From positions 29,579 through 93,578 of IMG/VR virus record IMGVR_UViG_3300031576_000016: 64,000 nucleotides of DNA; one strand, written 5' to 3'. Origin of the DNA: a virus. A program made the translations under genes and the position numbers. Numbering within the stretch: the stretch's first letter is position 1; each line of letters opens with the position of its first letter. Positions 4,246-28,300 of this stretch are shown here, one piece after another. The notes below the pieces were generated by a model. That model was given only the letters and a program-made list of their open reading frames with translations. It was not told where the DNA came from and searched no databases.

Positions 4246-4940
4246 TAGACATCACGCTGGACATCGACCCTGTTCTCGTTGAGCAGGAGATAGCACAGGC
4301 CCTGGTCAGGAAGTTCTCTGGCATTCTCAGTTCGATGATTGGGCCGGTTCGGGCTCGTGTGGCGGAAGCAATCGAGACGCTCATCAAGCAGTCGCCGGAG
4401 TATGTCTCTTTGACTGAGTCGCGCGGCCAACTGCGTGGTGAACTTGGTCTCATTGGCGGCGGTCCCAGGCCGACAATTGACCCAGAGTCGTTCATCAACC
4501 TGCTCATCAACACAATTCAAAACAATGTCGAAGTTGAACTGGAGCCATTTATCCGGACCGGTTCCACTTTCGTTGGTGGGCTCGTGGTCCGCGTGCTACG
4601 CTCGCAATTCGACGACCTGGTCGCGTTGAGCGGCGCTGTCTACGTCTCTCCCGAGCGCGGCTACAGCATCCCTTGGCTGAATTGGCTTTTGCTTGGAGGT
4701 CCCGGGGACCTCATCACAACCCATTGGTACATGCACACCGGAGAAACCGAACATAGGTCTCGTACCGGCATGGGCGTCATGGTTCCGGTAGGCGGCGGGC
4801 ATTCCGGCTGGGGACTTGGGCCCAACGGCGGCACCCCTGACAACAACTGGTTGACTCGCTCGCTCGCGCCGCTCGTCAATGGGCAGCCGAAAGGCGTCAT
4901 CCATGTGATTCTCGAAGAAGAGCTACTCAGGAGGACATAA
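4242..4940 (+). CDS. Neck/tail-completion candidate
   Basis: A 232-residue protein starting at ATG 4242 inside the upstream stop codon. The N-terminal 80 residues are amphipathic helices (VLVEQEIAQALVRKFSGI, VRARVAEAIETLI). The C-terminal half is Gly- and Trp-rich (WLNWLLLGGPGD, GGGHSGWGLGPNGG) and ends with a glutamate-rich strand. It lies between the zinc-ribbon protein and a 321-residue virion protein. It may be the tail terminator or completion protein by order; homology was not recognised. Confidence 0.5.
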   Translation: MIDITLDIDPVLVEQEIAQALVRKFSGILSSMIGPVRARVAEAIETLIKQSPEYVSLTESRGQLRGELGLIGGGPRPTIDPESFINLLINTIQNNVEVELEPFIRTGSTFVGGLVVRVLRSQFDDLVALSGAVYVSPERGYSIPWLNWLLLGGPGDLITTHWYMHTGETEHRSRTGMGVMVPVGGGHSGWGLGPNGGTPDNNWLTRSLAPLVNGQPKGVIHVILEEELLRRT

Positions 4941-5905
4941 TGTCTGACTATACGAAACTGAAGGGCATCCAGCACATCGGCGATGTCCTTTTGAGCAAGA
5001 CCCTCGAAACCAACATCATCACCTATTTCAATTGGGGCCTCCTGGAAGTCGGCGGCTTTTTCAATGTGTCCATTCCGTCGCCCGGCGTCTATGGCGGCGA
5101 CCAGCACAAGCTTCGCCTGGTGAGTGAGGACCCATACTACAGCACTGGTCAGGTTTGGGAGGGGTTCCGAAGTGATTGGGTGTGGGAGACCGGCGTCGAA
5201 TACGACTACCAACCAATCCGCGTCAGCGGCGTGAATGTCGATGGCACGTTCTACCCGACAGCGACCACGACGGGCACCTATGCTCACAAAATCAACTACC
5301 CACTTGGGCGTGTGACATTTGACAATGCCATTCCGCCCACCAGTGTTGTGACATGCGAACATAGCTACCGCTATGTCCATTTCACCCACGGCGGTGTGCC
5401 TTGGTGGAGGCAGATACAGACCAACTCCATGCGTGGGGACGACGTTCATTTCCTTCAGCAGGGAAGCGGAGCATGGTCCATCCTAGCTCAAAATCGTATT
5501 CAGCTGCCGGCTGTCATTGTGGAAGCCACGCCACGGACATCGCGCCGGCCATATGAAATCGGCAGCACGCGAGCCTGGGTTCGTCAGGATGTGCTGTTCC
5601 ATGTCTTGGCTGACAATCCGGACGACGTGAAGTTTCTGCACGACGCCATCACCTACCAGTGGCAAAAGCAGTTCTTTCTATTCGACCTGAATCGCATGTT
5701 CCAAGACGAGAAATTCCCATTGGACGCAGGCGGGTCGCCAGTGACCGGCGCAATGATGTATCCGCAATTGGTCGCCCCTACAGGCGAAGGCGGCTACCGC
5801 TGGAACATTGTCAGCACGGCCAACATGCAGTCTACAGACGCGAGTATGCCCGGGTCCATATGGGCGACCACAATTCGTGGCACATTTGAACTGGATTTAC
5901 CGTAA
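4940..5905 (+). CDS. Virion structural protein (neck/tail)
   Basis: A 321-residue, mostly beta protein with many aromatic residues, and AGGAGG immediately before the start. The start shares one base with the upstream TAA. Segments such as YPLGRVTFDNAIPPTSVV and CEHSYRYVHF look like strands of a large beta domain; the C-terminus ends in WATTIRGTFELDLP. Proteins of this length just before the tail tube gene are frequent in large siphophages and are usually called neck or tail structural proteins. The precise role is unknown. Confidence 0.55.
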   Translation: MSDYTKLKGIQHIGDVLLSKTLETNIITYFNWGLLEVGGFFNVSIPSPGVYGGDQHKLRLVSEDPYYSTGQVWEGFRSDWVWETGVEYDYQPIRVSGVNVDGTFYPTATTTGTYAHKINYPLGRVTFDNAIPPTSVVTCEHSYRYVHFTHGGVPWWRQIQTNSMRGDDVHFLQQGSGAWSILAQNRIQLPAVIVEATPRTSRRPYEIGSTRAWVRQDVLFHVLADNPDDVKFLHDAITYQWQKQFFLFDLNRMFQDEKFPLDAGGSPVTGAMMYPQLVAPTGEGGYRWNIVSTANMQSTDASMPGSIWATTIRGTFELDLP

Positions 5906-5969
5906 GCGGTGTAAATCTTAGTGGGCAACGAACGGATAGTCTAACAACCCCACAGGGAGCACAACGAAC

Positions 5970-6995
5970 ATGGCAAATAAGCGCATCTTCTATGCCGTGC
6001 AGCAAGCCGCCTTTACCAAGTGCGGCATCGAGGCGTATTCTTCGCCCGACGACAAGGCTGTTCACGGCCTTCAGAGCCTCGGCATCAACACCAAGTTCAA
6101 CCTTGAACAGGTGTTCGAGATTGGTCAGATTTCCATCTACCAAAACATCGAGAACATTCCGGACGTGGAAATCACGATGGAAAAGGTTCTCGACGGCTAC
6201 CCGCTGATTTACCACCTTGCCACGCACGGTGCGACGGTCCCGAGTCTCTCGGGTCGCGCAAACGTCAAGGCAACGGTTGGTCTGTCGATTTTCAACGACA
6301 CGCAGGACTCCGCGTCCGGCACCACGATTGCTCAATGCCAGATGTCTGGTGTGTACGTGAGTTCGCTCGCCTACAACATCCAGGTCCAGGGCAACGCGAC
6401 TGAGCAAGTCACCATCGTGGGCAACAACAAGGTGTGGAACAACGCCTTCACCACGACTTCCTTCGACAACGATGACGCGCCGCTCGCGACCGAAGGCGTC
6501 AACCGTCGTCAGCACATCAAGTTCGGTGCGTCTGACCCGGCCGGCCCGGTCAACAGTCACTTGCCGCAGGACATCCCGGGCATCACAAGCTCCGGCACGA
6601 ACGAACTGACCAACGGCGAGTTCGGTGCTCACGTTCAGAGCATCAAGGTTTCCGCAAACCTTGGCCGCGAACAACTGTTCGAGCTTGGCCGCAAGGGTCC
6701 GTTCCACCGCTACGTCAACTTCCCGGTCGAAGTTCGTTGCGACATCGAAGTCCTCAGCACGGCCGGCGACCAGGTCAGCGCTCTCGAAGAAGCGAGCAAC
6801 CTGACTGACCGCAAGATTTTCATCTGGATGACCGAAGGCACGAAGCTCGACCTCGGCACCAAGTCCAAGTTGGCCTCGGTCAACTACGGTGGTGCGAATG
6901 CTGGTCAGAACGGCGGCAACGCCACTGTGACCTACAGCTATGTGACCTTCAACGACCTTACTGTCACGCATCCCGAAGACCCGAGCGCGTTGTAA
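5970..6995 (+). CDS. Major tail tube protein
   Basis: A 341-residue protein with GGGAG 10 bases before ATG 5970. A beta-rich fold, a long central loop and the segment IKVSANLGREQLFELGRKG followed by VNFPVEVRCDIE near residue 230 suggest a tail tube or major tail protein; it is also the last gene before a strong terminator and lies between neck genes and the tape-measure group. No sheath gene follows, consistent with a non-contractile tail. About 45 residues of this protein recur, diverged, in a separate small gene at 56,296-56,538 on the other strand. Confidence 0.72.
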   Translation: MANKRIFYAVQQAAFTKCGIEAYSSPDDKAVHGLQSLGINTKFNLEQVFEIGQISIYQNIENIPDVEITMEKVLDGYPLIYHLATHGATVPSLSGRANVKATVGLSIFNDTQDSASGTTIAQCQMSGVYVSSLAYNIQVQGNATEQVTIVGNNKVWNNAFTTTSFDNDDAPLATEGVNRRQHIKFGASDPAGPVNSHLPQDIPGITSSGTNELTNGEFGAHVQSIKVSANLGREQLFELGRKGPFHRYVNFPVEVRCDIEVLSTAGDQVSALEEASNLTDRKIFIWMTEGTKLDLGTKSKLASVNYGGANAGQNGGNATVTYSYVTFNDLTVTHPEDPSAL

Positions 6996-10332: not shown

Positions 10333-13300
10333 ATGGCTGATTTCAACATTGTTGCGAGACTTCAGATTCAGCTTCAAGCTGGGTCTGCGGCGGCTGCGGT
10401 GCAGCAGCTTCAACAGCAGCTGCGCAACGCGAACCTGTCGCTCGCCTTCGGCCTCCAGCCGCAAGCTCTTGGTGGTCTCAACAACCTCAACCAGGGGCTT
10501 CGCGCGACTCAGGCTGCGGCCTCAGCAACCTCCTCCTCTCTGCGCAGTACCACCCAGGTCATCAATGATGGCTCCACGGCCATCGAACGCTTTGGGGCTC
10601 AAGCCGGGCTCGCCGCTCGCCGCTTCATTGCCTTCACCGTAGGCGCGTCTACCATTGTGAAAGTCGCGCAAGCCTTTCGAGAAGGTATTGCGGCCGGTAT
10701 TGATTTCAACCGCACGATGGTGAAGATTGCCCAGGTTGGCGGCGACACCAAGGGGCAGTTGGCTGAGCTTGCGTCAGAAGTGACCAGGCTCTCGACTACC
10801 TGGGGCATCTCGTCCAAAGAGCTTGCTAACGCGGCACTCGTTTTCAAGCAGGCCGGCTTGTCGGCTCAAGAAGTCAAGGGCCATCTTGAGACCCTTGCCC
10901 TCACGGACCTCGCGCCAAACTTCGAGTCGATGGCTCAGACGGCCGAAGGTCAAATCGCCATCTGGCGTCAATTCGGCACCAACGTAGACCAAACGCGCGA
11001 AGCCCTTGGTGCAGCCAACGCGGTTGCCGGCGGCTTTGCCGTTGAGTCGCGCGACCTTATCGAAGCCGTCCGCAAATCCGGCGGTGCGTTCAAGGCAGCT
11101 GGCGGCAGCTTCAACGAGTTCATTTCTCTGTTCACAGCCGTGCGTAGCACGACACGAGAATCGGCCGCTGAAATCGCGACCGGTATGCGGACAATCTTCA
11201 CCCGCATTCAGCGTCCTCAGACTGTTGAGTCGCTCCGCGAACTCGGCGTGAATTTGCGGTACACAGCGGATGAAGCCAAGAATCTTGGTCGTGCCGACCT
11301 CGAAAATCAGTTCGTTGGTCCATATGAAGCCGTGAGCCGCTTGAACGAGGCACTGCGGGACATTCCGACCACGGACCCGCGCTTCTTGCAGGTCATCGAG
11401 CAGCTTGGCGGCTATCGTCAGGTCAGCCGTGTTCTGCCGATGATTCTCCAGTTCAGTGAGGCTCAGAAGGCCCTGAACGTCGCTCAAACCGGCAGCCTGT
11501 CCCTGACAGCGGCAGCCGAGAAGTCTCAGGAATCGCTTGGCCGTCGCTTGAGCCAGGTCAACGAAGAGTTCCTTGGCTTCATGCGAAGCATCGTGGAGAG
11601 CAAGGGTTTCCAGAGCTTTGTGCGGTTCTCCCTGGACCTTGCCAGCGCACTCATCAAGGTCCTGGATGTGGCTCGGCCACTTATCCCGGTCATCACCACG
11701 CTCGCCGCAGTCCGTATCGCACAGAATTTCGGCCAGACGGCCGGCGGCTTCCTCTCGCACTTCATCGGCACGGCCCCGGGCAGCTTCACTCCGAAAAAGG
11801 TTGAACCTGGCGTTCGCTTCGCCAAGGGCGGTTATGTTCCCGGCTCGGGAGCTACCGACTCGGTCGCGGCTCACGTCATGCCGGGCGAACACGTCACCAA
11901 GAAAGATTCGACGCAGTCGGTTGACCGCCGGTATCCTGGCTTCTTGACAGCCATGAACCAGGGGGGCGACATTGGCGTCGAGAACTATTTCCGACATCGT
12001 TTTGCCGATGGCGGCGAAGCCCGCCAAGGGTTCGGCTTTGGTGACACGGTCAAGTCACTTCTCGCGAATAGCGTTCTCGGCCTTGGACTGCTAACAGGCG
12101 TTGATTCCGGTGACGCCTACGAAGTCGCAAAACAGCGAAGTGGCGAACAAGTCGAGCACGTCCAGAAAAGCCTTCAGGAAGACGAGAAGAAGAAGCGCCA
12201 AATCAAGCAAGCTTTCGGCGGCGAGACGCCGCGTCAGCGCTTCGGCTTTGGTGACAGCGTCAAGAAGTGGCTCTCGACCGGAATCTTGGCAGCCGGCTCG
12301 CTCGTTGGTGGTCACGGCCTGGACGACCAGGTTTCTGTTGGCCAACAGGAAAAGCGCGACCGCATCGAGAATGTGAAGGAGTCGCTTGAAGAAGAGCTTC
12401 GTCGCAAGAACAAGAAGAAGCCTCAGAAGCTCGGCAAGGGCGGTACGCCCGACCTGGTTGCCGCCGATGGCTCGATGGTTCTGCCTCTCATCGAGAAGCA
12501 CTTCGACGATGTCAAGCAAGACGACCGTGGTCGCTATGTTACAAAACAAAACAATCGCGATGTGTTCTTCGAGTACATGCCAAAAATCAACGCCCTGAAG
12601 ATTGACTTCTTGCAGGACGGCATCGGCGACTTCAAGCACACGAACAAGTCTCTCCAGAAGGGCACACTGTCCTTCCTGCGCAATCTCCAGGGCGTTGCCA
12701 AATCTGCTGGCCAAAAGGTATTCGGCATTGTTGCGGCGGGCTCGGAACAAAAGCGCTCGAAGATTTACAAAGAGGGTCTTGAAAAGCTCGGCTTTGTCGC
12801 AGACGACACGTGGTCGGAATACTACAAGAAAGCCGCCTTCGGCGGCGAGATGCGGCTGGCCAAGGGCGGCGATGACATCTTCAGCAAGTTGCCGAAGTAT
12901 CCAAAAGAGGATGAGTCTGAGCTTCCGCCACAATACGGCAACCCAATCAATGAGTTCATACAGAAGAAAACTGGCCTAAGTAAGAAAGAGATAACTGCCG
13001 CTGCTCTTGCCGGGAGCGTTGCCGCTAATGGACTCCTAGCTGCCACTAGCATGTGGATTCCAGGTTCGCAGCCGGTTGCTACCGGCATTACTGCTCTTGG
13101 AATCGCTGGTGTCAAGAAGTTACTGAAAAAGCGCCGTGGCTTTGCTGGCGGTCTGGATGTCATGCCAGATGGTCAGCATGAGTCGCTTCGTAATCTGTAC
13201 GACCAGGTCAAGGAATACGCAGAGACGCGATTCAGTGCTCACGCTGGCAGCCCGGAAAGCGACCAGAAGAAGAGCAAGGCAACCATCGCTCACATTCGCC

Positions 13301-16300
13301 GCCTGGCGGCTGCTACACTCAGCAGGAAGGAAGTGTTGCAGCGTATCCCGGCCGGCTCCTCGATTGCTGGCATCGGTGCCTTCGGTGTGGCTATCAAGAC
13401 GCCCGATGGCGACGTGATTCGCGCTCAGGCCGACAAAGCACCGGACCTCGCAAACAAATACGCCGCTGAGATTGGACGCAAGCCGTTCAAGCCTTGGCAG
13501 TACGCAACCGCTCGCCCGCCTATTGATGAAGTGTTGCAGCCGACAGCCACGATGACTGTCAAGAAGGGTGAACGCTCAACGTTCATGGAGCGTCTGCCTT
13601 ATGTGACGCCGCTCACCGAGCTTCCTCACCATCAGCAGGAAGAAGCTCATGAGAAGGCCCAGGCAGAACTGTTGCCGTCGATGGCCAAAAAGGGCTGGAT
13701 GCTTACTGACAAGCACAAGGGCAACCTAGCGGTTGACAAGGCCGGCCGGTTCATCGCGCTTGACCCGGCGACTGCCAAAAAGATGAATGAGGACCAGCAG
13801 TCGCGGCTTCTCAGGATTCTCGCTTCAGACAAAGCGGTTGCTACTGGCCTGCCAGGGGCTCAGGTCGATGAGTCTACGATTCACGACCCGCGTCTGAGTG
13901 TTAGCCCGCCAAGTCCAACAGTGCAGACGCGCGGTCGTAAAAAGTTCGACATCGGCGGCGAAGCCGCTTTGCCGGAAGCAATGAAGTTGTTGCAACAACG
14001 CTTCCAGACTTTCGACGTGTCGCGTATTGCTGAGAACGTGACGTTTCACGACAAGATTCCATCGAAGACTTTCCCAGAGCGTGGCGCGATTGGTAAGTTT
14101 TATCCGGAGACGGATGAAATTGCCCTTTCTCGCCAGTTGAAGTCTCCGCGCCTTCTTGCAAAGACGCTGCTTCATGAATTCGTTCATAGGATTGATTACG
14201 ACGAGGGCACGCAAAAGCGGCATGGCTCTCGCGACAAAAAGTCTGTTCCCGGCAAGTTGGCTGCGCAGCTTCAGCCTGCATGGTCTGAAATGGCGATGCA
14301 GAGATATTTCAAGGGTAAGACCAAGGAACAGTTGACTCCGAAGGAACAAGAGTCGCTGGCATATCTGACGGCTCCACATGAAGTTCTTGCCTACATGGTC
14401 TCGGACGTGGCCACTCGGGACAAGGACCAGGTTCCTGAAGAACATGAAAAGGCTGTGCAGACACTGCTCAGGCGTCACCTACCGGCTCGGCAACCGCAGA
14501 AGTACGAACGTGGCGGATGGGTTGTCCCTGGCGAAGGCAACACTGACTCCTTTCCTGCTGACCTTGCTCAGGGTTCGTATGTCATCCGGAAGTCCTCGGT
14601 TCAAAAGCTCGGCGCGTCCAACATCCTGAAGATGGCAACCGGCGGCACTGTCCCGGCATTGCTCATGCCTGGCGAGGTTGTTATTCCGCCAGGTAAGGCT
14701 CGTCAAATCGGTCGTCACGCTCTGACCGAGATGAACCTTCACGGCCGTATGCCGTTCGCTCAGGGCGGCTTTGTGCGGATGGCAACTGGCGACCAGGTGC
14801 CGAAACAGGAGACTGTCAAGGTCGGCGCGCTACCTGAACGTTTTCAGGATGACGTTGAAAGGATGTTTCGTGGACTTGGTGCCAAGGTTCAGAAGCCACT
14901 GCATGAACTTGAAGTGGTCATTGAGCGGTTCGGCAAGAACATTGTCCGCGTTGTGAAGATTGTCGATGTGGCTGTCACTTCTACCGCGTTGCCAAAATCG
15001 GCAGCTTCTGCTGCTACGACTCCAGCAACCAAGCCACAAACAGTGCCTGCGCTGCAAATAGTCCGGGACCTGAAAGCTCACTTGATTGCTCAGGCTGAGG
15101 CGGGTGGTAAGTCTGGCAAGCTTTCTTCCGAGCAGGTTGAGAAGCGCAAGGCTCGCTATGACAAAATGCTCAGTGAGGAAAATCCAGAACGGTCGCTAGA
15201 AAAGTATGCCAAGTTTCAAACGAAGGCCCCGTCCTTCAGTGGTTACTTGGACAAGCGAGACCGCAAGCAAGCTGCCGAGGACCTGAAGAGCACCATCTAT
15301 ACGTCGTACCTGGAGACTGGCACGACTAGCAAATACAAGAGCGCCAAAACTCCCGAAGAACGTGGTCGCGTGTTAGCTACGGCTGTGCCAAAGTACATTC
15401 GTCAAAATCTTGCCGATTTTGAGGGTGGTACTGAGACTGGTCGCAGCTATGAGACTGCGAAGAAGACTCGTGGCCTAGAGAGTCAATATCAAAAGGCGCT
15501 GAGGACACAGTCGCCAGAAGAAGCTTTGAAGTCGGTTGTTTATCAGGCAACAGCAAAGCGCATCCAGTATGAAGAAAGCTCTCGTCAAAATAAGGGTAAA
15601 GCGCCACGAACCCAAAAAGAGCTTCAAGCTGCAATTGAGGAACGATACCAGACGCGCATGGGCAAGTATGATGCCCACGACTTTGAGGGGCCGGCTGCGG
15701 ATGTGGCTCGCGCAAAACTGTTCGGGCACAAAGACCATATCAAACGCGGTGCCGAGGAAGCTTCTGCACGTACCGGCAAAAGCGTTGACGAAACCAGGGT
15801 CGATAGTCTTGAAGCACTCCATAGTAGCCTTGGCGATAGTTCTCAGGCTGCGGCCATTTATCGTCAGCAACAAACCACCGGTCTCCAAAGCCAACTAAAG
15901 CGCGGTAAAATCAGCCAGGCTACTTTTGAAAAGCGAGTGGCCAAGCTCGATTCTCTAAGCGACGATAAGGCATCGAAACTATTACTGTATACCAGGGATG
16001 GTACGCTGCGCGAGAAGGTTGGCAAGCAGCTTGCTGCCGCCGGCATTACCGCCGGTAAGACTCCTCAAGAGACTCGGGAGAACATTGGTAAACGCCTCCA
16101 GGAAATGAAGGGAGAGTTGGAGGCTGCTAAGCCGACAACGGTTCCCGAAGTTGCCGGTCGCGGCCTCACGCCGGAAGAGAAGCGTAAGCGACTCGTTGAC
16201 CAAGAAGTTCGCGGTGCGACCCTAGAGTCCGACTTGACTCCAAGCAAAGCCGACTTGAAGGAGTTGCGCAAGGACCCGGCCTTTGTAAAACAAGAGAAGC

Positions 16301-19300
16301 AAGACGCTGCACCATCAGCCCCGGAGAAAGCCTGGACTCAGCCAGCAGCCGCCGCCCAGACTGTTGCCCTTCCTACTAAGGTGGACGCGGTCAAAAAGTC
16401 TGTGCCTCGACCGACCGATAGGCAGCAACTTGAACGTCGCCTGAACGAACTCGAAGGCGTGGATGTTCCTTCTGCGCACGAGATGAAGGAAATTGCCGAC
16501 ATCCATCGGCAGTTGAAGAATCAGAAGACACCGGTTCCGCCACAACAACAGACCGGACGTGGCCGCGTTCGCGATACGCTTGCTCCGAGTGACCTACGTG
16601 ACATCCAGGAACAGACAAAGGACCTGGTTGTGCCCGAGGCCGCGATTTCGTCTGCCTCCGATAAGCTCAAGGCAGGGCCTACCGCTCAGGTCGCACGACA
16701 AGAACGCGAAGCTCGCGATAAGAAGCCGTCGCCAATCATTTTGCCTGGTGACCAACCGGCTGGTCCGCCGCGTCCGCTCTTCATTCCTGGTCAGACACAG
16801 GCGCAGCCTGATGCAAAGGTTTTCACAAGCGAAGCTGACTTCCGCCGCAGTCAGCAACCTTCTGCCAAAATTGTTACTGGCGATGAGACTCCGGTTCCAT
16901 CGCTGGTTCAACCGACTCGGGAAGAAGTCAAAAAGTATGGTCGTTCTGCTGCTGGCCCGACTGCGGTTGCAGCAGCAGCTAAACAGCCTCGTGACATTCG
17001 TCGCATTATGGACAAGTTGGCCACTTCCGGTTTGGTTGAAGACTTGGAAGTGCCTGGTAAGGGTGCTGACCCACGAGCCAAGAAGGGGCTTCTTCGTTAT
17101 CTGAAGCAGTATGGCGAAGAGATTGAGAAGGCTGGCAAAGGCACTTTGTCGCGTCGTCTTCAGAAGCTTGCTCGCAAGGCACCAGATTGGCAACCAAGCT
17201 TGCGTGGTATTCTGCCAGCCCCAGAAGAGGACACTACCACGTTTTCGTTCGCTGAGGAAGCGGCTGCCGCCACAAAGTCCAAGCCTCGCCCAAGCAAGAA
17301 GACCAAGGAACTGGACTTGGCGGTTGGCTACAAAGAGCCAAAGGTTGAATTTACGTTCCCTGAAGAAAAAGCGCCGCTGCCGCTTGAAAGCGACGTGAAC
17401 CAAAAGTCGCGGCTGCGCCGTGAGCAGGAAGAGGAAGCCAAGAAGCGGCACAAGAACGCCGTGGATTTGGCATCGCAGCCAAGTCACAAATTGCAGGGGG
17501 ACGCGGCAACTGTCCCGGTCAGTCTGACAAAAGAAGAAATCATCAGTAAGACCGTTAGCGATTTTGCTCCTACGGGCGAACCGAAGGAGCCGGATGTGCC
17601 GGCAAGTCTATTTGATAAGGACAAGAAAAAGAAACAGACTTCTCGCCAAGAACATCTCAAAAAAGAGCGCCAGAGGTTCATCAAAGAAGAGGGCGTAACT
17701 GAAGAAGCGATTGCGTTTCGTGAGCGGATGCTTGACAGCACGAAGTCGCTGGATGAAGCTCGCAAGCTCATAGCCAGTCCCGAGTTTGATGGCCACGAGA
17801 AAATCAATCCTTATTTCGATGTCTACGCTCAAGAGCGTCATGGACAGAAGAAGAAAAGGAAGCCAAAGACTTGCGGCCTTGCTCCGGAACAAAGCTTCTT
17901 TGATAAGCCGACGCCGCAGCCGCGTCCGACCAGTTCGTTGCCGCCTCCTCCTTCGGGCAAGGTGCCTGAGACCTATAGTTTCGCTGGGGACCCGCCGGAG
18001 TCGAAACGGTATCACGTCGAAGGTGACCCTCTGCATCCAGCCCAACAACAGGGCGGTGAGCACCGCTCGCGCGACTTCTACCGCACGTTGTACAACAGCA
18101 CAACGGCTGGCGATACGCTTGGCTATACCAAGAAGACGCGCCGCGAACTCGCAAAAGCCAAGGATGCTCTTGACCAGGCTCGTCTCGATGCTGCCGCTGA
18201 CCCTACCGACGACAATCGGTTGCGTTTCAAAGAAGCTGGGCGGGCTTATGACAAGCTTGAGAAACAAAAGGTAGTCGTCGGCCGACGCGAAGCCGACCCG
18301 TACTACGCTCGTCGATTGCTCGACCAGGCGAAGTCGGAATTGTTGCCGCACGAATACAAGGCGTTCGAGGCAGAGACACGTCGCGTTCACCCGAACCTTG
18401 CTTCGCAGGGCGGCGACCCAACCATCTTGCGTCAGTACAAGGAAGGCAAGAGCGACGACGAAATTCGCGATAACCATTATGGACAAACTGGCAGACGAGT
18501 TGGTCTATTTGGTGGAGCCGCTATCGGTGGGGCTGTTGGCTCATTGTTTGGTCCACTCGGCACCGTTCTTGGCGGCACCATTGGCGCTGCTGTTGGTCAA
18601 AAAATCGCAAAAGCCCTGCCTGGGTCTGCGGCGTTTGAGGAATCATTAGCAGAGAAGGGGACGGGCAACGTCAGTGTCGGTCATATTGCTGAGTACAAAA
18701 CCGACAAGGAGACTGGCCAAAAGCGGCTTATTGGCGGTGACCTTCGCGAAAAAGGCCAAGCTGAACTAACCAAGTATCTGGCTGGTCGCGGTCCTGTCAG
18801 CGATGCAACAAAGCACGCCTTTGAAACTGAGGCCATCGGGCGGGCGGAAGCCCGCGTCAAACGCGAACTGATTTCCGCGCAGGAACGTTGGCTGAAAGCT
18901 GTTCATCCAAATATCTCTGCGACCGAAAAACACAAGTTGGCTCTTGAGCAAGTTGATGCTGCTCTTGCTGGGCAGGCAAAGGTTGTCAAGAGTTCAACAG
19001 GTCGCTATTTGGGCGTTGAAACAGAGCACACGAAGGCGAGCGACCTGGATAAGGCCACAGGCGCTGGTGGTGTTGGTTTCCAATTTCGCTCAGCTAAAGG
19101 TGCTATTGGCGACTGGATGGCCGATAAGTATCGTAGCTTGAAGGCTGGCTACGAAAAGTTCGAGTCGTCTAAAGCTGGTCAAGTGCTGAGTGGCGCGGGC
19201 AGCTTTTTGTCCAGTCAACCGGTTACGTTCTTGGCTCCGCTACTTGGAGGACAAATTGAACAATCGGCCGGCACCGCTGAAAATGCAGTCAAGGCTGGTG

Positions 19301-22300
19301 CTAGTGGTGAAGGCACATATACAACTCGTCGTGGAATTGGTGGCGCTGCAACGGGCGCGATTCTTGGCGCAACTGTCGGTTCTATTGCTGGTCCGATTGG
19401 TGCCGCAGTTGGTGGTGCAGCTGGCGCTCTGGTTGGATTCACAAGTGCTATCAAGGATGCTGCAAACGAAATTCGTGAAGTAAAAATTGGCAATGCGTTG
19501 ACCATTATTTCGGACCGTTTGACCACGATTGCCAATGTGCCAGTACGAACTTTGCCAGGTGGACAGGCTACTGCTGATGACCCATTGGTTCGTTCTTCGA
19601 TGGCTGACGTTCTGCGTGAACTCACTACTTCTCGCAATGAAACACTCGACAAAAACATTAGTGAATCTAGCGGCTTCTGGCGTAGTGCCGGAGCCGTGTT
19701 CGGCATCTCGAATCCGGTTGATGTTCAAGGTCTCGCCGCGCGTCAGGAATCTGCTGACCGCCAGCAGGTTTCTCAAATCCTGCCGCAGAGCACGCAAATC
19801 ATCAACCGTCAGGCCGAAGTGTTACTACGCAACAATCCGAACATTGGCGCTCGCGACGTTGCTCGACGCCTCAGCACTGAGGGTCTCACTGGCCAACTGA
19901 TTCCTCGCATTGCTCAGGCTCGCCGCGTACCACTAGAACAATACTTGGATGAGCTTGCTTTGCAGGTTGCCCAAGTCAATACTCGATTGCGTGCTGAGTT
20001 GGCGCAGCACCAGGCTCGCGAAGGCCAGGAGAAGGTTATTCATACCTTTGGCCGGCTCGTGCTGGCGGTCCAATCGGCCTCCGACAGCCTGGTCACTCTG
20101 CGGGCGCAGGCTCAGTCTATGTCGGATGTGTTCTATGGCAACGTCACGGCTACGCCGGTCACCGCTCATTCCGAAGCTCTAACTCAGCTGGGACGCCAGG
20201 ACCGTGGAGCCATTCGCCCGCTTGAAACCATCTCTCACGTCGTTGGCGATGAGCGCGGCAACCGTCTGCTTGAGCACGGCCGGGCAACTGACGATGTGGC
20301 TCGCGTTCTACCGGCTATCCTGGCTCGCGTTGGTTCGACCAACCCGCTTGAGCCGTCTGACTTCTCCCGCCAGGTGCGCGAACAACTTGTCAGCGCTTTC
20401 GGCGGTACGCCAACAGGCGGACAAAACGCCGCCATCAACACCGTTCTGTCTGAGATTCAACGTGTCGGGGCGACGGGCGGCACCGCGCAGATTTTGCGTG
20501 AGATGCAGATTGACGCGACCGAGTTCACGCAGAAGCTCATCAACCCGCTGGCTGACCCGTTGAAGAAATTTGGTCAACAAGTTGCCCAGGACCTGGAGAA
20601 GGCCGGCAAGGAGTTTACCGAGAACGTCAACGAGTTTGTTCGTCGCACTCGCGTGGCCGGCGAAAGCATGGACCGCCTGGCTGCACTCCGCGTCACCACG
20701 GCCCGGGTACGAGCCGAGGTTACGGCCCAGCAAAGCGGACGCCCGAATGATGTGCTCAGCCAACTCTCTCTGCAAACTCTTCAGAGCGGTTTGCAGTCTC
20801 GTCAAGAACGATTGACTGGCGTCGTCGGTCCGGCAGCGAGCAACCCAGACTTCATCGGTCGCCAGCTTCAGACTGTTCGCGCTCGTATCAACGAAGCGAC
20901 CCATCGCCAGCAGGAAACCTTTGAACTGACCGGCGGACGCGGGCCTGCTTATGAAGCAGCAGCGCTTCAGTTGGCTCGGTTGAAGGACCAAGCAGCCAAT
21001 TTGCAAAATGCTCTCAAGCACCTGGCTGACGTGTCCGAGAGGAACGCAGCTGCGCAGGAAAAGTTGGGGGCACTCAAACAAGAAGCTGATGCTCGCATTG
21101 GCCTCGGCGAACGCTACCTGCGTGCTGACGGCGAAGAGATGATGCGGCTCAATCGCGGCAGCCTCCTGGTCAACCAGGCATACAGCCGGCCGCAAGGTCA
21201 GCGCGGCCTGGACAACCTATCGGTTGAAGACCGTCGTCTCGCCCTGGATTGGGTCGGGGCTGCACGTGGCACACGTCTACAAGGCTTCCAAGGAAGCCCG
21301 CTGGCTGATGACGTTCATCGCACGCTCATTCAAGAGAGTGCTGGCGGTGCGTTCAACTTGACCGCTGGTCAACAGAACGAGATGCAAGAGTTGCAGCGTG
21401 TCCTATTGGCAAATGCAGCTACTGCGGAGCAGGCTCAGAACCAACTCATCACATTCCAGCGTGAGTCGGCTGGTGAGTTTTTCCAGAACCTAACTCAGCA
21501 ACACGAGCAGTTTTTCAGTCGTCTTGAACAGACGCTCGCACGCGACCGTCTCTTTGAACAACAAAATCGTTTGAATGAAGTGGCAACTCAGCAGGCTTCG
21601 CTTCAGGGTTTGAATACGAATCGCGAAACTCTGCAACGAGCCGGCGTCACCAACGATGACCAAGTTCGCAATTTGCGCAGCAATCGCGGCCTTGTTAGCG
21701 AATACATGGGTCGCGTAAGCGAAGTACAAGCTTTGCGCCAAAGGTCAAGTAATCCGAGTGGCGCTGCCGATATTTTCGAGCGCACTTATGGCGACCGTCT
21801 TGGTTCGCAATTCTCTGATGCTGGCGGATGGGGAATCAACATTGGGCAAATGGGCCTTAGTTCTGGTTCCATAGGTCGCCTAACCGAGAATGTGCGAAAC
21901 ACCACAGGGTTCACGCCTGAGCAAACTCAAAGGGTTATCTCTAGGTTCTTGCAGCGTTCTGAAAACATAACTGGCCAAACTGGTAGTGCCAACACCAGAA
22001 GTGCTGTTACTGCAAACATCGAGGAGGCTATTCGTCGCGAACAGGCTTTGCAGTCGCAGGAAGCGCAGCAACGCTTGGCACCACTAGAGAATAACCTTCG
22101 CGGACGCCAAATCAACGTTGGTGGTCTGTCGCAGGCTGCGGCAAGTGGCAACTCAAACGCTCTGCTCCAGGCTATCGACTCATTTGATGGCGTTTCCAAC
22201 TCCTTCACAACGCTGGATACGCGCATCCAGAATACCGCAGCGTCGTTCATCAATCTATCGAATAGTGTTCGCACGCTTCAGACGCGCGTTGACAATAACA

Positions 22301-25300
22301 ACCCTAACGCTGGCGGCAATCCTTTCCGTTTTGCAACCGGCGGCACGGTTCCAAATGAACCAAGTCGCGTCTATCGGTCCTATGGCACTGACTCTGTGCC
22401 AGCCATGCTCACCCCTGGCGAGTTCGTGGTTCGGGCCGAAGCTGCGAGTGCCAACCGTGGACTTCTCGAAGCCATCAACCGCTCGAAGGGCGGTAGCGTC
22501 CAATACCACCAACGTGGTGGAGTCGCTTATCTGGCTGATGGTGGTTACGCAGATGATGAGCCGTGGGAAGTCAACGCTTACAACTCGCTGTACCGTCGCC
22601 GAAGCATGATTGGAGCCGGCGTTCTGGCTACCGGTGCTGCTTATCGTTATCGTAGTCAACTTGGCTCTGCTTGGCGAAACACCCTTGGTCGCGTTCCGGG
22701 TTTGAGATGGACAGCCGGGGGAACTCCAGCAGCGGCAGCGGCTCCTACTACTACCGCTTCGCCGCCAACTCCGGTAGTGGAGCCTATGCCAGCATCCGTT
22801 CCGGCCACGCAGCCTCGTCAGGGGCTCCTTGGTCGCGTTCGCGGGTGGTTCGGCGGGACAGCCCCAGCACCTGTTCCTTCTCCTGCTAATACCGGAGCCG
22901 GCTATTTCACGGCACCGGCCGACAATGTCGCGGCTGAGCTTGTTCCATCGCCTGCCCCTGCCGCTCCAGTAGACCCGGCTACCGCTCATACTGAACGTCT
23001 TAGTCGTCTGACTCCAGAAGCTCGTGCTCGCTACCAACGCATTATGGCGACCGAGCCAATCTCGCGTGCTGACGCTTTGGCAAGAGCAGAAGCGTACAAC
23101 CAACGCATTTTGGGTGCTCAGACACGAGGCGCAGAACGTGCTGCTGCTTACGGCCAACAGCAATCGAACTACGGCGCTGCACAACCACGCAATGCTCCGA
23201 CGCAACCTGTGGCCAATGAGCCGCCAGGCTCAAATACGTGGTCGCGTCCAAATCGCGTTATTCCTCGTCCTTCCCCGACCGCCGCTACCACTTCGTCCCC
23301 AGCGGCAGCACCAGGCGCAACCCCAGCGCCTGTTGTTGAGGCTCCTGCTCCGGCTGCGGCTCCCCGCGCAACCGGAGCAGCCTCTACTCGCGTCACGCCA
23401 ACAACCGCAACCGAGCCAGACATCTATCGCTTGGCTCTCCAGGAGACGGCTGGCACACCACGTACTGGCCCAACCATTCGTCAGCTTCAAGCGACGAACG
23501 GAGCGGCTCAGGCTCCTCGTCCGCCTGTTCCGCAGGCAGCAGCGGCAACGCCAACACCAGTTGCACCCGTTCGCACACAGGTGACCGCTGGCCAAGGCAT
23601 GGTAATCACGCTTGGCGCGAGCTTGGCCTGGAACCACCTGGCTCAGCAAGCCGGCTTCAATCAGAATGTCACCGACGCCGGCAACCTTGGCATTCTTGGC
23701 GGCGGCGTGGCATTGTCTACTCCGACCGTTGCTGGTGCTGGTCTGTCAGCAACCGTGGCTGCACCTGCGGCCATCATCGCTGCACCAGTGGCTGGTGTCA
23801 TGGCCGGCAACATCATCGGTCGCAACGAAGACGCGACATCGCTGTTGACGACTGTCGTTCGTAATACGCCGACACCGCTGGCTGTCGCATACCGTGCGGC
23901 CGGCATCGACGAGGATGTGGCTCGCCGAGGCAGTCGCGAATATCAACGCATCTCTTCCAATGTTCACCAGGCACTGACAGTTCCTGGTGGTGATTGGGGA
24001 CAACGCACTGCTGACGCAACTGCAAGCTGGGGTGAAAATGTGCCGGTAGCCGGACACATTGCTTCAGGTGTTGCGACATTTGGTGCTAACACAGGACGTG
24101 TGGTCACCGATGTTGTCACTGGCGTTGGTGCTGAATTGGCAACGCCGGTTGTCAACACGCTGGATGCTGGTGGTTCCTACATTCGTGCCAGCCAACAAGC
24201 GGCCTACACTGATGCTCGCGCAGCGTTCCAGCCATACTTCAGCAAGTATCTGGATGCCATCGAAGCTCGCCAAGATGAGCAGTTGAATGCGGCTGGCGCT
24301 TTGATTCCTTCGCTGAAGAGCGAAGTTGACGCCGCCATCGCTCAGACAGAATACCGCTCAGCGGTGCCGGAAGCTTCTCGCTCGTCGTTCTCCGCGCGTC
24401 TTGGTCGCATCTCGATTGGTAAGCCAACAGAGACCAGCCCAAACATCCTGAGCTTCATCGAAGACACATATGGTCAGGGTCACCTATGGAAGACAAATAA
24501 TGGTGTTCACCTACAAGATGTGATGCGGCAGCATGGCAGTCGCGTCGGCATGGGCGATGATGAAGGCGTTCGTATCGACTTCCAGAACCGCGCGAGTGAG
24601 AATCCGCGAGTCGGACGCGAAGCGATTTTCGCCAAGCTCCGTCAGCGCATCACTCAGCCTCTGGATGGAGCCGAAGGCCCGCGTCCTCGATTCGCTGTCA
24701 TGGACCGTTTGCGTGACGCTTACACTCCGGGCGACAACAACATCCGCACAATGATTGACCGGCTCCGTGGCGAAAGTGCTACCGAGCAAACAGTCCAGAC
24801 GGACCGTCACACGACATTGCTGACACAGGCGACTCAGTTGGACAATGACGAGCAACGCGCGGCATTGTTTGAACAGCCGACTCGGTTGCAGCAGCTACGC
24901 GAAAGTCTCCGGGCTCGTCGCGAAGTAGTGGCGGCTTTGGCAAACATGCCCGCCGACTACCGCAACTTGATGACATGGTACACCACTGGTTCGCCGCCGT
25001 GGATGCAACGCATTCGTCAGTACCAGCAGGCAGCAGTTCTGGCTGGTCTCGACATCGAACGCGACCAAATGCTGACGCCTATCGGCTACGCAGCAGACCG
25101 GTTCTCGAACGAACAGCGCGAACTCATCACCAATGTTCGCCGTGGTCAGATTGCTGAAATTCGCCGTCGTCAGAATGTGGATGCTCGGCTCGCCAATGGC
25201 GACACGCTCACGGCCATCTTGAATGAGGTGCCGGCTGGGTGGAAGTCCATCTACGAACAGTCGATTCGCGAAACAGGCGGCAGCAATGCCGCAGAGACTG

Positions 25301-28300
25301 CTCACCTGACCGAGACAATGGGCGGCGTGGCCGGCGTCTATACTCGCGTTATTGGCGGCAACTTCGAGGGCAACAACTCGGCAGGCCAGCTTGCTTCGGC
25401 CGCGCGTTTGATTCCGGATGATTTCCTACGTGCTCAGCTTTTGCCTGGTGGTCTTGAAGCCGACAACGCATTGTTCTCCTACCGGTCGAGTGACCTTCAG
25501 GATGCGATTGGGGCCGTTCGTCAACGACAGCTTCGCTTGCTACAAGAGGCCGGCGAAATCAATGCGGTTGGCGATGTGCCTCGTCAGCTTCGCAACGAAG
25601 GTGTCATCCCAGGCTTCGCTCCGCTCTCGTCCATTGCTCGTCAGTATCTGACTCCGCAGGCCCTGCCGCTTGATGCGTTCTTGGCCCAGGCCGGCAATTC
25701 GGAAGTGTCGCGTCGGTTCCGTCTGCGTGACGCTAACAACATCAAGCGTGAGAATCGCTCGTTCATGGCGATGCGACTCGACACGGCAGAAATCGCTGCT
25801 GCTCTGAATCCGCAGGCCGCGCCAGCCCCAGCCCCGAATGCAAACGTTCAACTCGCACGCGGCGGCATGGTCTATCTCGCCCAGGGCGGTATGCCTTCGC
25901 CGCTGTTCCAGCCGAGGGGCACGGACACCATCCCGGCAATGTTGTCGAAGGGCGAATTCGTCGTCAACGCAGAAGCAACCAAGCAGCACCTGCCGCTTTT
26001 GGTGCAAATCAACGAGGGTCGTCGCCCATCCTACCGCGAAGACGGCGGGGCTGTTGGTGGAGCTATGTCGGCTGTCGCTGCGACTGCTTCTACGGCCCCA
26101 TCCTCCCCTTCTCTGCTCAGTTCCGGAAACGAAGGCGACACCTATAACTTGGCCTCGATGCCGAGCAATGAACGCTTCTTGCTGACACAGACATTGTCTA
26201 CTCTTGGCAAGCACCAGGTCGGCTCGATTCAAGACGCTGACGCTCGTCTGACGGGTCTCGAACAACGTTCGTCGAGCACCGCAGCCACTCAAGACAACCT
26301 GGCCGACGACCGCATCATTTTCGCGAAACTCGTGGCCGACAACATCGACGCCGGTCACCGCAATGCCGACGTGTTGGTCCGGTCGCAAACTAACCTTCAG
26401 AAACGGTTCTTCCTCCACTTGGGCGGCTCCCAGGACAAGTTCCTTGACAAGTTCGGCATGTCGCTCACTCTGGCTCCGAAGCTCGCGGCCAATGCCGCTC
26501 GCGCGGGTGACACGAACAATGTCTCGATGAAGCTCTTCCGCACCGGCGGCGTCGTTCAGTATTACGCAACCGGTGGTGAAACCAGCATGTTCCAGCCGCG
26601 CGGTTCGGACACAGTTCCGGCCATGTTGAGCCATGGCGAGTTCATCGTCAATGCGGCCTCGACTCGGCACAACCTGGGTCTGTTGCGAAAAATCAACAAC
26701 ACCAAGGGTCCGGTCTATTATGCACGCGGGGGCCTGGTGGGTCCGGCCTACTTCTCTGAGGGTGGTCAGGCAGAACAACCGCAACCGCCGCCGATGCCGG
26801 CCACGCCGTCCGAGCCGATTTACATCGACGAGGCAGGCCCGACTGTGGCTCAGCAGAATGCCGCAGCCGGCATTCAGGAATCTGGCGGCGAAGTTCCACA
26901 AGCCAGCAATGCTGCGGCTACGGCTCCAACTCCTGAGCTTCCGAGTCAGACGCCGTTTGGCGAAGACCCAGACCGCCCAGCAGCGGCCATGTTCCGGTTC
27001 GCGGCCGGAGGGTTCGTCCGTCCACGTTACTTGGCCCAGGGCGGACTTGTCAGCTACTTCGATGGCGGTGGACCTGTGCCGGCTCCGGCCCCAGCGGAAA
27101 GCCCTGAGCAACAACAGACCTTCCAACGATGGCGAGATTACCTGGCTGAGCCGGCGAATCAAACGCCGCCTCAAATCCAGATGTTGGAAGGGTGGTTCAA
27201 TCGCGGCTTCGGTGCCAATGGTTGGGACCGCGCGGCATTGCGTGCTCGCCTGGCCCGAGACGGCAATCGTCTATCTCCACGTTGGCGAGGTTTCTTCCAG
27301 GCATGGTCTGGATGGGTCGGTCGTCAAAACACCGAGCGCGATGCAGCCGCACAAGCTCGTCTGGAAACATTCCGTCGTACCTTGGTGCCGACTGTCGGCG
27401 GCGCGCCAGCCGCGCCTCTGCCGCCCGAACAGGCAGAAGCTCGTTACCAGGCCGAGTATCGTCGTCTCCGCGACATCTGGACTCGTGGCGGCAATCCACT
27501 TCAGGGCAATCTCGAAGGCGACGACGTTGAGGCGTCGGTCAATCAGGAAACAACTGCGGCCATCGCTGCCGGTCGTGCGAATTTCCAGTTCCTCAGTCCG
27601 GAACAGCGTGCTCGCTATCGCATCCTTCGTGAAATGCAAGGTGCCCAGGTTCGCCAGCGCACGGCTCGCGGACAGGCCCTGACGTTCACCGGCGGTCCAA
27701 CAGCTGACAACGCGCAAGGACGCGCTCTTGGCGAAGGCATTACAGGTCAGCAGGCATTCGCAGCGGCTCCTGGCGCTGTGGCCGAAGAGAACCTGTCTCC
27801 GACCGAGCAGGCTGTCCTTGAGGAAGAATATCGCTTCGCGGCTCAGGACCGTTTCAATCGTGAGACCCAAGGTCTGACGACTCTCGAACAGTTGACGCAA
27901 TACTGGCAGCCGCGCGAAGGACAGTCGAGCCCAGCATTCCGCCAGGCGTTCCGCGCGAACTCCAGTCGATACACGCCTCAGCAACGGGCAGAGATTCAGG
28001 CTCAATGGGACTTCTACGACGCCTACCTCGCACGCCGGCCGGCTCTCGAAGCGGCTCAACAGCAAGCGCGCGAACAGCAACGTCAGCAGGAAGCACAGCG
28101 TCAGCGTGAGGCTCAGGAACGCGAGACCGCCAACCAGCGCGTGCAAACGTTCCGCGACCAGCAGGCCGCGCTCGACCAGGAAATTCAGTTCCAGGCTGCC
28201 GTCAATCCGAATGGCGGCTCGGCGAACTTCCTACGTGAACGTCAAGCCGGCGAGCAGTTCAACCAGAACATGCAGCGTTTCAACGCTCGTTGGGGCGAAC

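What the first reader, a model, noticed from the sequence alone, without database searches (positions are those of the whole stretch)
12445..14415. Tandem enzyme-like cassette inside the tape-measure protein
Residues about 700-1,360 carry three successive modules that look enzymatic rather than structural: GNAT-like, protein-kinase-like and HExxH zincin-like. Tape measures are ejected into the cell with DNA, so this may be an injected effector cassette, similar in idea to the polyvalent proteins described for phages and conjugative elements. To my knowledge this combination inside a tape measure is unusual.
Basis: partly seen in the sequence, partly recalled or inferred. Interest (0 to 1): 0.82.

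Follow-up and report, generated by a model that had tools for sequence, protein, structure and literature searches.

The report
Swappable enzyme cassette in phage tape-measure
A virus that infects bacteria carries a protein-cutting enzyme, and probably other protein-modifying enzymes, inside the giant 'ruler' protein of its tail, in a slot where related viruses carry different enzymes, which suggests that the ruler also delivers interchangeable tools into the infected cell.

Summary
The ORF is real: a 6,291-aa tape-measure protein (TMP) of a 93.6-kb uncultivated phage record. The kinase-like module is moderately supported. The GNAT-like module is unproven.

The larger result is comparative. 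In 130 sampled, distinct homologous TMPs the N-terminal core is followed by a repeated glycine-rich 'PGE' motif. Between PGE copies lies a variable cassette, with profile hits to zincin in 15, HAD-like in 41, P-loop plus HIGH-nucleotidyltransferase in 19, PD-(D/E)XK-like in 27 and kinase-like in 3. ADP-ribosyltransferase occurs in at least 2, including the window's nearest relative. Among 47 pairs with nearly identical cores, 11 lose alignment across the cassette and regain it downstream; 4 of them differ in detected enzyme families.

Best reading: an exchangeable effector slot in the TMP, working like polyvalent or polymorphic effectors. Delivery into the host is inferred, not shown. My searches found no such description of phage TMPs; TMP-like effectors of contractile systems are the nearest precedent.

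The parts
10333..29208 (+). 6,291-aa tape-measure protein ORF that holds everything below
   Evidence: Single open frame; PF10145 7.6e-24, TIGR01760 2.6e-22, PHROG tape-measure families
10585..11727 (+). Conserved TMP core (residues 85-465)
   Evidence: 41-53% identical to 15 relatives; 517 IMG/VR stretches encode a relative
11818..11970 (+). PGE motif copy 1 (from residue 496), left border of the cassette; family consensus ...GGLVPGSGGTDTVPAMLTPGEFVINKSAVQKIG...
   Evidence: Motif profile, at least one copy in 84 of 85 TMPs and 130 of 130
11971..14514 (+). First cassette (residues 547-1394): variable insert between PGE copies 1 and 2
   Evidence: No blastp match to any other closed first cassette (E <= 1e-3; E <= 1e-6); one match to L018 (E 7.7e-9) runs from the zincin into the PGE motif
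12430..12837 (+). GNAT-like segment (residues 700-835); unproven
   Evidence: Motif impression only; no family hit
13321..13881 (+). Kinase-like domain (residues 997-1183): glycine loop G1013-G1018, catalytic loop D1126-x-H-x-x-N1131, D1144
   Evidence: ABC1 23.9 bits vs cut-off 22.9 on residues 977-1186; catalytic-loop profile hits only kinases in the PDB
13957..14496 (+). Zincin domain (residues 1209-1388): HExxH at 1281-1285, D1288, Y1344, E1350
   Evidence: Profile E 6.4e-9; A2 alignment; AF2 block pLDDT 84-96 over residues 1210-1359; VIA Z 9.2 to lethal factor 1j7n
14515..14775 (+). PGE motif copies 2 and 3 (from residues 1395 and 1439), right border of the cassette
   Evidence: Motif profile
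18499..18615 (+). Glycine-zipper stretch 1 (residues 2723-2761), possible membrane-inserting segment
   Evidence: PF13488 7.6e-5, below its cut-off
18673..22332 (+). Conserved ruler-like part (residues 2781-4000)
   Evidence: blastp to relatives, e.g. 34% to L056 and 29% to L055
19330..19437 (+). Glycine-zipper stretch 2 (residues 3000-3035)
   Evidence: PF13441 6.6e-4, below its cut-off
22369..28663 (+). Further PGE copies start at residues 4013, 5183, 5412 and 6111 (28663), with variable inserts between them
   Evidence: Motif profile
28873..29205 (+). Conserved C-terminal part
   Evidence: blastp 29-36% to L055, L056, L065

Best explanation
The tape-measure protein of this phage group doubles as a carrier of exchangeable enzymatic effectors. 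After the conserved N-terminal core, PGE motifs bracket a cassette slot. In the window the slot holds a truncated kinase-like domain, a lethal-factor/IrrE/ArdC-like zincin protease and an unresolved GNAT-like segment; in relatives it holds ADP-ribosyltransferase, HAD-like, P-loop plus HIGH-nucleotidyltransferase, nuclease-like or kinase-like domains. Shown: the modules, their catalytic signatures, their position, and their turnover between close relatives. Inferred: the TMP leaves the tail with the DNA, and the cassette acts in the infected cell by cleaving or modifying host (probably defence or gene-expression) proteins.
For: Zincin found by a profile made without it (E 6.4e-9; 11 of 11 leave-one-out relatives recovered at E <= 2.2e-4), with HExxHxxD and the Glu kept; good model of that domain matching lethal factor (Z 9.2), IrrE (5.6), ArdC (4.6). 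Kinase. Nearest relative L055 has an ADP-ribosyltransferase (60.5 bits, cut-off 23.4) plus a zincin in the same slot. PGE in 130 of 130 TMPs. Hits in the first cassette: HAD 40 of 41, NTase 19 of 19, P-loop 19 of 19, PD-(D/E)XK-like 27 of 27; that region is 33% of the residues after PGE 1, and no hit lies before PGE 1. Turnover: of 47 pairs with core identity of at least 85%, all 47 keep a downstream match, 16 have no match of the isolated cassettes, and in 11 of these the full-length alignment also breaks over the cassette. On the core tree HAD, NTase and PD-(D/E)XK-like labels need 15, 11 and 17 changes.
Against: No test of activity, virion presence or delivery. GNAT has no profile support. 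Kinase models are low-confidence, and the isolated ABC1 score is only 1 bit over its cut-off. The zincin is spread less freely (4 changes, shuffled mean 14.5; 12 of 15 in one 33-row set), and 5 of 16 zincin hits lie outside the first cassette. Foldseek gave no PDB match at E <= 0.001, and the VIA output warns that models without a clear match typically reach Z 7-8. Of the 16 'no match' pairs, 5 align through the cassette when the whole protein is aligned, and only 4 differ in detected families, from few lineages, so divergence as well as replacement contributes.
Confidence: 0.6

Rival explanations
1. The domains work in the producing cell: the zincin processes the tape measure or other tail proteins during assembly, and the other domains are assembly or quality-control factors.
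For: Proteolytic maturation of tail proteins is known (recalled: lambda gpH). The zincin lies next to PGE copies 2 and 3.
Against: Zincin was found in 15 of 130 TMPs while all 130 have PGE, so it cannot be a general processor. ADP-ribosyltransferase, nucleotidyltransferase and phosphatase domains have no assembly role that I know of. Cassettes turn over while the core stays.
Confidence: 0.15
2. The cassette helps DNA cross the cell envelope: the zincin is a wall- or envelope-cleaving enzyme like the muralytic domains known in other tape measures.
For: Muralytic domains in tape measures are known (SPbeta-type TMPs are annotated as transglycosylase).
Against: No wall-hydrolase family matched the window cassette. 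The fold is nearest lethal factor, then IrrE and ArdC, which work inside cells (recalled). Kinase, ART and nucleotidyltransferase do not fit.
Confidence: 0.1
3. The cassette is mainly a decoy or escape surface: host defences such as SNIPE recognise tape measures, and cassette change alters the recognised surface; enzyme activity is secondary.
For: SNIPE associates with tape measures (PMC13190303, passages read). The cassette varies far more than core and downstream part.
Against: The catalytic columns of zincin, HAD-like and NTase domains are kept, which a mere surface does not need.
Confidence: 0.07
4. The cassette is decayed foreign sequence tolerated as tail spacer without function.
For: One relative's zincin copy (L022) lacks the full motif. 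The window's kinase-like part has an Arg (R1030) where I expect the usual Lys (my reading).
Against: 14 of 15 zincins keep the full HExxH motif at 15-22% identity to the window; 6,291 codons stay open.
Confidence: 0.08

Closest known systems
Polyvalent proteins (Iyer et al. 2017, PMC5512222; passages read)
   Same: Several enzyme domains in one large mobile-element protein; the same classes (peptidases, kinases without the C-terminal lobe, ADP-ribosyltransferases, GNATs); thought to be injected; cassette-like variation suggested there for kinase-containing loci.
   Different: The passages name MuF, portal, RNA-polymerase and conjugative-element carriers; the word 'tape' does not occur in the main text. 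Here the carrier is the tape measure, with PGE motifs as cassette borders.
Tape-measure-related effectors of contractile injection systems, Sle1 and Tme (PMC13277306: abstract and passages read; PMC11126660: search listing only)
   Same: A tape-measure-like protein carries variable functional domains and is ejected from a tail-like particle; the authors call it reconfigurable.
   Different: Bacterial contractile systems in Actinobacteria; in Sle1 a C-terminal, mostly helical functional domain after a coiled coil. Here phages, an internal slot after the N-terminal core, and enzymes of known superfamilies.
Polymorphic toxin systems (PMC3482391, search listing and start of abstract only)
   Same: Constant carrier with exchangeable effector domains.
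   Different: The cassette is internal rather than C-terminal; immunity genes were not looked for.
Tape measures with cell-wall enzymes (SPbeta YomI, annotations)
   Same: Homologous TMP core and an enzyme domain in a tape measure.
   Different: Annotated as transglycosylase, a wall enzyme, not a protein- or nucleotide-directed one; core about 23-29% identical.
Anthrax-lethal-factor-type zincins, IrrE and ArdC
   Same: Predicted fold and HExxH...E pattern of the window domain.
   Different: About 14-17% identity over the aligned parts; no cell-binding parts seen; a shared fold shows no shared target.

Membership tests
Phage tape-measure protein | PhageMin_Tail / TP901 core and place in a tail gene cluster | tested here: met
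   PF10145 85.1 bits (cut-off 33.2); TIGR01760 79.3 bits (cut-off 28.8); lies downstream of an ORF (5970-6995) that I read as the tail tube without library support and whose relatives carry homologous TMPs
Zincin metallopeptidase (gluzincin type) | HExxH plus a downstream Glu in a conserved context | tested here: met
   H1281/E1282/H1285 and E1350; columns invariant or at least 90% in 15 TMPs
Zincin metallopeptidase (gluzincin type) | Zincin fold | tested here: met
   Block pLDDT 84-96 over residues 1210-1359; VIA Z 9.2, 159 residues, rmsd 4.1, 15% identity to 1j7n; but Foldseek no match at E <= 0.001
Zincin metallopeptidase (gluzincin type) | Zinc binding and peptidase activity | not testable with these tools
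   Needs biochemistry
Protein-kinase-like fold (ABC1/APH side) | Curated family score | tested here: inconclusive
   ABC1 23.5 and 23.9 bits (cut-off 22.9) on short constructs; 20.3 and 21.2 on longer ones
Protein-kinase-like fold (ABC1/APH side) | Glycine loop, catalytic Asp/Asn and metal-binding Asp | tested here: met
   G1013-G1018, D1126, N1131, D1144; profile with two relatives hits 3 PDB chains, all kinases, best E 0.0097
Protein-kinase-like fold (ABC1/APH side) | ATP-anchoring Lys of strand 3, and the fold itself | tested here: inconclusive
   R1030 sits where Lys is expected (my reading); models low-confidence
GNAT acetyltransferase | Match to a GNAT profile | tested here: not met
   No hit at E <= 1 in Pfam, PHROGs, NCBIfam; a remote GNAT could still be missed, AF2 low-confidence
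Polyvalent proteins | Several effector-class domains in one mobile-element protein | tested here: met
   Zincin and kinase-like in the window; ART plus zincin in L055; census
Polyvalent proteins | Characteristic associated (LPD) domains | tested here: inconclusive
   LPD14 once (E 0.0015) and LPD1 once (E 0.0034) in relatives; none listed for the window cassette
Polyvalent proteins | Delivered into the host with DNA | not testable with these tools
   Inferred from what is known of tape measures
Polymorphic toxin | Exchangeable effector domain with an adjacent immunity gene | not tested
   Turnover seen; immunity genes not looked for

The most novel reading that the evidence does not exclude
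In a large phage group, so far seen by me only in metagenomic records and genome bins, the tape measure is a general-purpose, polymorphic effector-delivery chassis: PGE motifs act as exchange junctions, and each lineage loads its own set of enzymes into the slot to act on the host during the first moments of infection.
Probability: 0.5. Interest if true: 0.88.

Novelty: new variant of a known kind. Interest (0 to 1): 0.77.

Why it matters
If true, the ruler of a phage tail is also a magazine of exchangeable tools, so the many unannotated giant tape measures become a place to look for host-takeover and anti-defence enzymes. It would join polyvalent proteins, contractile-system effectors and tape measures into one theme, and it makes testable whether folded enzymes travel through the tail tube ahead of the DNA. 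It also bears on a noted gap: a study of phage protein shuffling saw mosaic signals in tape measures but could not confirm genuine recent cases (PMC10684548, passages read).

Tried and rejected
Homologues of the cassette itself: 8-mer scans of IMG/VR with the whole cassette, the kinase part, the zincin part and the TMP core of the window found none. Capsid relatives (L004-L014) showed no tape measure: a protein search of 11 records and a PF10145 search of 6 were empty. Record-wide protein searches with the zincin and kinase parts in 21 tail-tube relatives were empty; profiles worked where BLAST did not.

tblastn of the three parts against cultured phages gave no match for the kinase part and only E 0.6 or worse for the others; of the kinase and GNAT parts against plasmids, none and one at E 0.5. 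The Psychrobacillus phage Perkons hit for the GNAT part (E 2) lay in its tape measure, whose core matches (6.9e-22) but which has no PGE or zincin match of note; a HAD-profile hit at 0.0012 and a P-loop hit at 7e-4 in that single protein were judged chance. The plasmid hit showed no likeness by eye.

Kinase: a single-sequence model gave pLDDT 45 and was not searched. hhalign of the window kinase with the two other kinase-like domains gave nothing (probability 0.1), and phmmer only E 13 or worse at that place in the larger set, so common descent is not shown; only motif order is shared. The composite kinase motif and the T[LVIA]xHExxHxxD pattern were written after seeing the cases they count.

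Zincin: L060 (E 9.7e-4) was dropped because one of 20 shuffled sets reached 0.001; four hits at E 0.026-0.047 were not counted. HAD: the profile found no HAD structure in the PDB (one hit, LexA, E 0.097); the name rests on motif columns and PHROG polynucleotide kinase 3.4e-5 for L038. PD-(D/E)XK rests on motif reading and YqaJ E 0.02 in one member. The 'DFP' domain (79 TMPs) has no name; its profile A10 was made but not searched.

Turnover: my first wording (16 of 47 pairs unrelated) was too strong; one search shows that 5 of the 16 align through the cassette.

Sampling: two scans each kept the best 80 of 517 relatives, nearest to the window and to L025; 196 TMP ORFs were reduced to 130 by dropping those sharing over 70% of 6-mers with a kept one, which can also drop short fragments such as L050, the one TMP of 85 without PGE. 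Counts are of this sample.
Full report
WHAT IS THERE. The window is bases 29579-93578 of a 93,578-base IMG/VR virus record. The finding lies in one open frame, 10333-29208 +, 6,291 aa, a tape-measure protein (TMP): PF10145 7.6e-24, TIGR01760 2.6e-22. tblastn of residues 1-1489 against 50,697 cultured-phage records matched only the core, in 26 Bacillus phages, mostly SPbeta-like, at 23-32% identity; a relative's core matched 29 records, the 25 listed at under 30%. Close relatives came only from metagenomic virus records and from 13 contigs in genome bins, two called Gemmataceae, whose binning I did not check.

RELATIVES. The neighbouring ORF at 5970-6995, which I read as the tail tube without library support, led to 21 records. 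In 15 of 15 TMPs taken from them the window's N-terminal part (from residues 1-87 to 462-568) matched at E below 1e-80. An alignment of 16 cores then found 517 relatives in IMG/VR; each of two scans kept the best 80. After removing near-copies 130 distinct TMPs remain; many are cut by contig ends or by the 10-kb flank. The longest open frame met is 7,737 aa.

THE PGE MOTIF AND THE SLOT. Right after the core comes a 57-residue motif with consensus FASGGLVPGSGGTDTVPAMLTPGEFVINKSAVQKIGLGNLEAMNKGVQGFAKGGKVK. It occurs in 84 of 85 TMPs of the first sample (the exception is a 558-aa fragment) and in 130 of 130 of the larger one, 429 copies. Many PHROG tape-measure families match at the same places. 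The window has copies from residues 496, 1395, 1439, 4013, 5183, 5412 and 6111. An insert of at least 100 aa closed by a second copy is present in 113 of 130 TMPs: 117 to 2,310 aa, median 494. The window's insert (547-1394) has no blastp match to any other closed first cassette at E <= 1e-3; one match to L018 (25%, E 7.7e-9) runs from the zincin into the PGE motif. By contrast residues 2781-4000 and the C-terminus match many relatives.

ZINCIN. Residues 1209-1388. A profile built from 11 relatives, without the window, finds it at E 6.4e-9 among 85 TMPs; leave-one-out recovers 11 of 11 at E <= 2.2e-4. In 15 TMPs (15-22% identity to the window) the E, H and D of HExxHxxD are invariant; the first His and the later Tyr, Glu and Ala are at least 90% kept. 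Zincin families of Pfam match members weakly: SprT-like 5 of 15, M48 4, M78 4 at E <= 0.1. AlphaFold2 with these rows gives block pLDDT 84-96 over residues 1210-1359 and 68-85 beyond; the rest of the 701-residue model is poor (mean 57.7). VIA-align: lethal factor 1j7n Z 9.2 over 159 residues, rmsd 4.1; IrrE 5.6; ArdC 4.6; its notes warn that models without a clear match often reach Z 7-8. Foldseek alone had no PDB match at E <= 0.001. The pattern T[LVIA]xHExxHxxD, written after seeing the cases, occurs in 12 of 130 TMPs after PGE 1 and in none of 200 shuffles.

KINASE-LIKE PART. The isolated domain passes Pfam's ABC1 cut-off (23.5 and 23.9 vs 22.9 bits); longer constructs do not (20.3, 21.2). 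It has a glycine loop (1013-1018), D1126-x-H-x-x-N1131 and D1144, and ends soon after, as polyvalent-protein kinases are said to do (loss of the C-terminal lobe; PMC5512222, passages). Two relatives, L040/L025 and L112/L207, have a domain with the same motif order in the same slot; a profile of the three catalytic loops matches three PDB chains over 20-23 residues, a ribulosamine kinase (E 0.0097) and PI4-kinase twice (E 1.6), all kinases. Against: hhalign and phmmer do not link the window with these two, and its own model is poor (pLDDT 45).

GNAT-LIKE PART. No library hit, no useful model. L056 (same record as L015) has a segment next to its zincin that I read by eye as GNAT-like; it too has no Pfam hit. 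This part of the observation stays open.

THE CENSUS. Pfam over 81 first cassettes at E <= 0.01: ADP-ribosyltransferase exoenzyme 2 (best 1.8e-16), HIGH nucleotidyltransferase-associated 2 (2.5e-7), DnaJ 2, SprT-like 2, ABC1 1 (the window), LPD14 1, and 12 more families once each, several of them unrelated to enzymes (10 long cassettes were cut to 900 aa; L024 and two under 60 aa were left out). The best ADP-ribosyltransferase (60.5 bits) is in L055, the relative with the most similar core (57%), whose slot also has a zincin; L117 has one too (27.7 bits, cut-off 23.4); of 40 records searched, 3 matched and 2 passed the cut-off. Profiles grown from seeds that I chose by motif found, of 130 TMPs: HAD-like 41, P-loop 19, HIGH-NTase 19 (the same 19 TMPs), PD-(D/E)XK-like 27, an unnamed domain 79, kinase-like 2 plus the window, zincin 15; 106 of 130 have at least one profile hit, counting the unnamed domain and L060. 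HAD and NTase keep the columns I expect to be catalytic; the NTase profile hits two PDB proteins, one named nicotinamide-nucleotide adenylyltransferase, the HAD profile no HAD. In the first cassette lie HAD 40 of 41, NTase 19 of 19, P-loop 19 of 19, PD-(D/E)XK-like 27 of 27, unnamed 84 of 84, zincin 11 of 16 hits; this region is 33% of the residues after PGE 1, and no hit lies before it.

TURNOVER. Of 47 pairs with core identity of at least 85%, 47 have a downstream match and 31 a match of the isolated cassettes. Of the 16 others, 11 also show a break over the cassette in full-length alignment (under 30% of it covered) and 5 align through it; in 4 of the 16 the detected families differ (L200/L195, L200/L188, L066/L075, L066/L076), so few independent events are shown. 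Clearest case, L200 and L195: 84% over residues 4-593, then nothing until 984/1169, at the next PGE (988/1172), then 63%; one cassette has a PD-(D/E)XK-like, the other a HAD-like and the unnamed domain. L078 and L070: 96% to 536, resuming exactly at PGE 2, both with a PD-(D/E)XK-like domain. In L071/L075 and L191/L185 similarity resumes 15 and about 55 residues before the PGE. On a quick core tree HAD, NTase, PD-(D/E)XK-like and the unnamed domain need 15, 11, 17 and 11 changes (missed hits would add changes); zincin only 4, with 12 of 15 in one 33-row set that holds the window. In the window's clade the zincin therefore looks like an old, kept part.

HOW IT LIKELY WORKS. Shown: a conserved carrier, border motifs, variable enzyme-like cargo with kept catalytic residues. 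Established knowledge: tape measures leave the tail and reach the inner membrane; the lambda tape measure is labelled by inner-membrane ManZ during genome entry (PMC13190303, passages). Inferred: the cassette emerges with the tape measure and acts on host proteins. The glycine zippers downstream of the cassette (below Pfam's cut-offs) would fit membrane insertion. Open: whether a folded zincin fits the tube or travels unfolded, and which side of the membrane it reaches.

PRIOR ART. Searches for tape measure with polyvalent, kinase, acetyltransferase, metalloprotease, ADP-ribosyltransferase, polymorphic toxin, enzymatic domains and domain insertion, and for polyvalent proteins with zincin, showed no report of such cassettes in phage tape measures. 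Apart from the papers read in part, only listed titles and abstract beginnings were judged (20 of 277 papers, 15 of 73), and only open-licence papers are held. Nearest: Sle1/Tme effectors and polyvalent proteins. Hence 'new variant of a known kind'.

Noticed in passing
window 22510-25878 and 26749-28662: Further variable inserts of the same tape measure between later PGE copies (residues about 4060-5182 and 5473-6110); Pfam gives nothing above its cut-offs there.
   Followed up: no
L040 residues 1096-1440 and 18 other TMPs: A P-loop domain followed by a HIGH-type nucleotidyltransferase with conserved GGFAPxTAGH and ISxTxVR stretches inside the tape measure, in the same 19 of 130 TMPs; NMN-adenylyltransferase-like.
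   Followed up: partly
L020 residues 653-737 and 78 other TMPs: An unnamed domain of about 85 residues with invariant E, D and G and a DFPxGLG stretch, in 79 of 130 TMPs; perhaps nuclease-like.
   Followed up: partly
L055 residues 632-781: ADP-ribosyltransferase exoenzyme domain (60.5 bits) in the tape measure of the window's nearest relative, beside a zincin.
   Followed up: partly
G048 (record of L117): An open frame of 7,737 aa around the tape measure with an ADP-ribosyltransferase match inside.
   Followed up: no
window 30685-36222: 1,845-aa ORF after the tape measure with no PHROG hit at E <= 0.01 and no Pfam hit above cut-off; perhaps a tail-tip or adhesin protein.
   Followed up: no
window 61787-63445 (- strand) and L003:8720-9859: A glycosyltransferase (PHROG 6.3e-26) and a GDP-mannose dehydratase (Pfam 2.5e-110) in the phage record; sugar-modification genes.
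   Followed up: no
L043 228-2513 and 3683-7900: In a Gemmataceae bin contig zincin profile matches lie near the end of the tape-measure open frame and near the start of the next long frame; broken gene or sequencing error.
   Followed up: no
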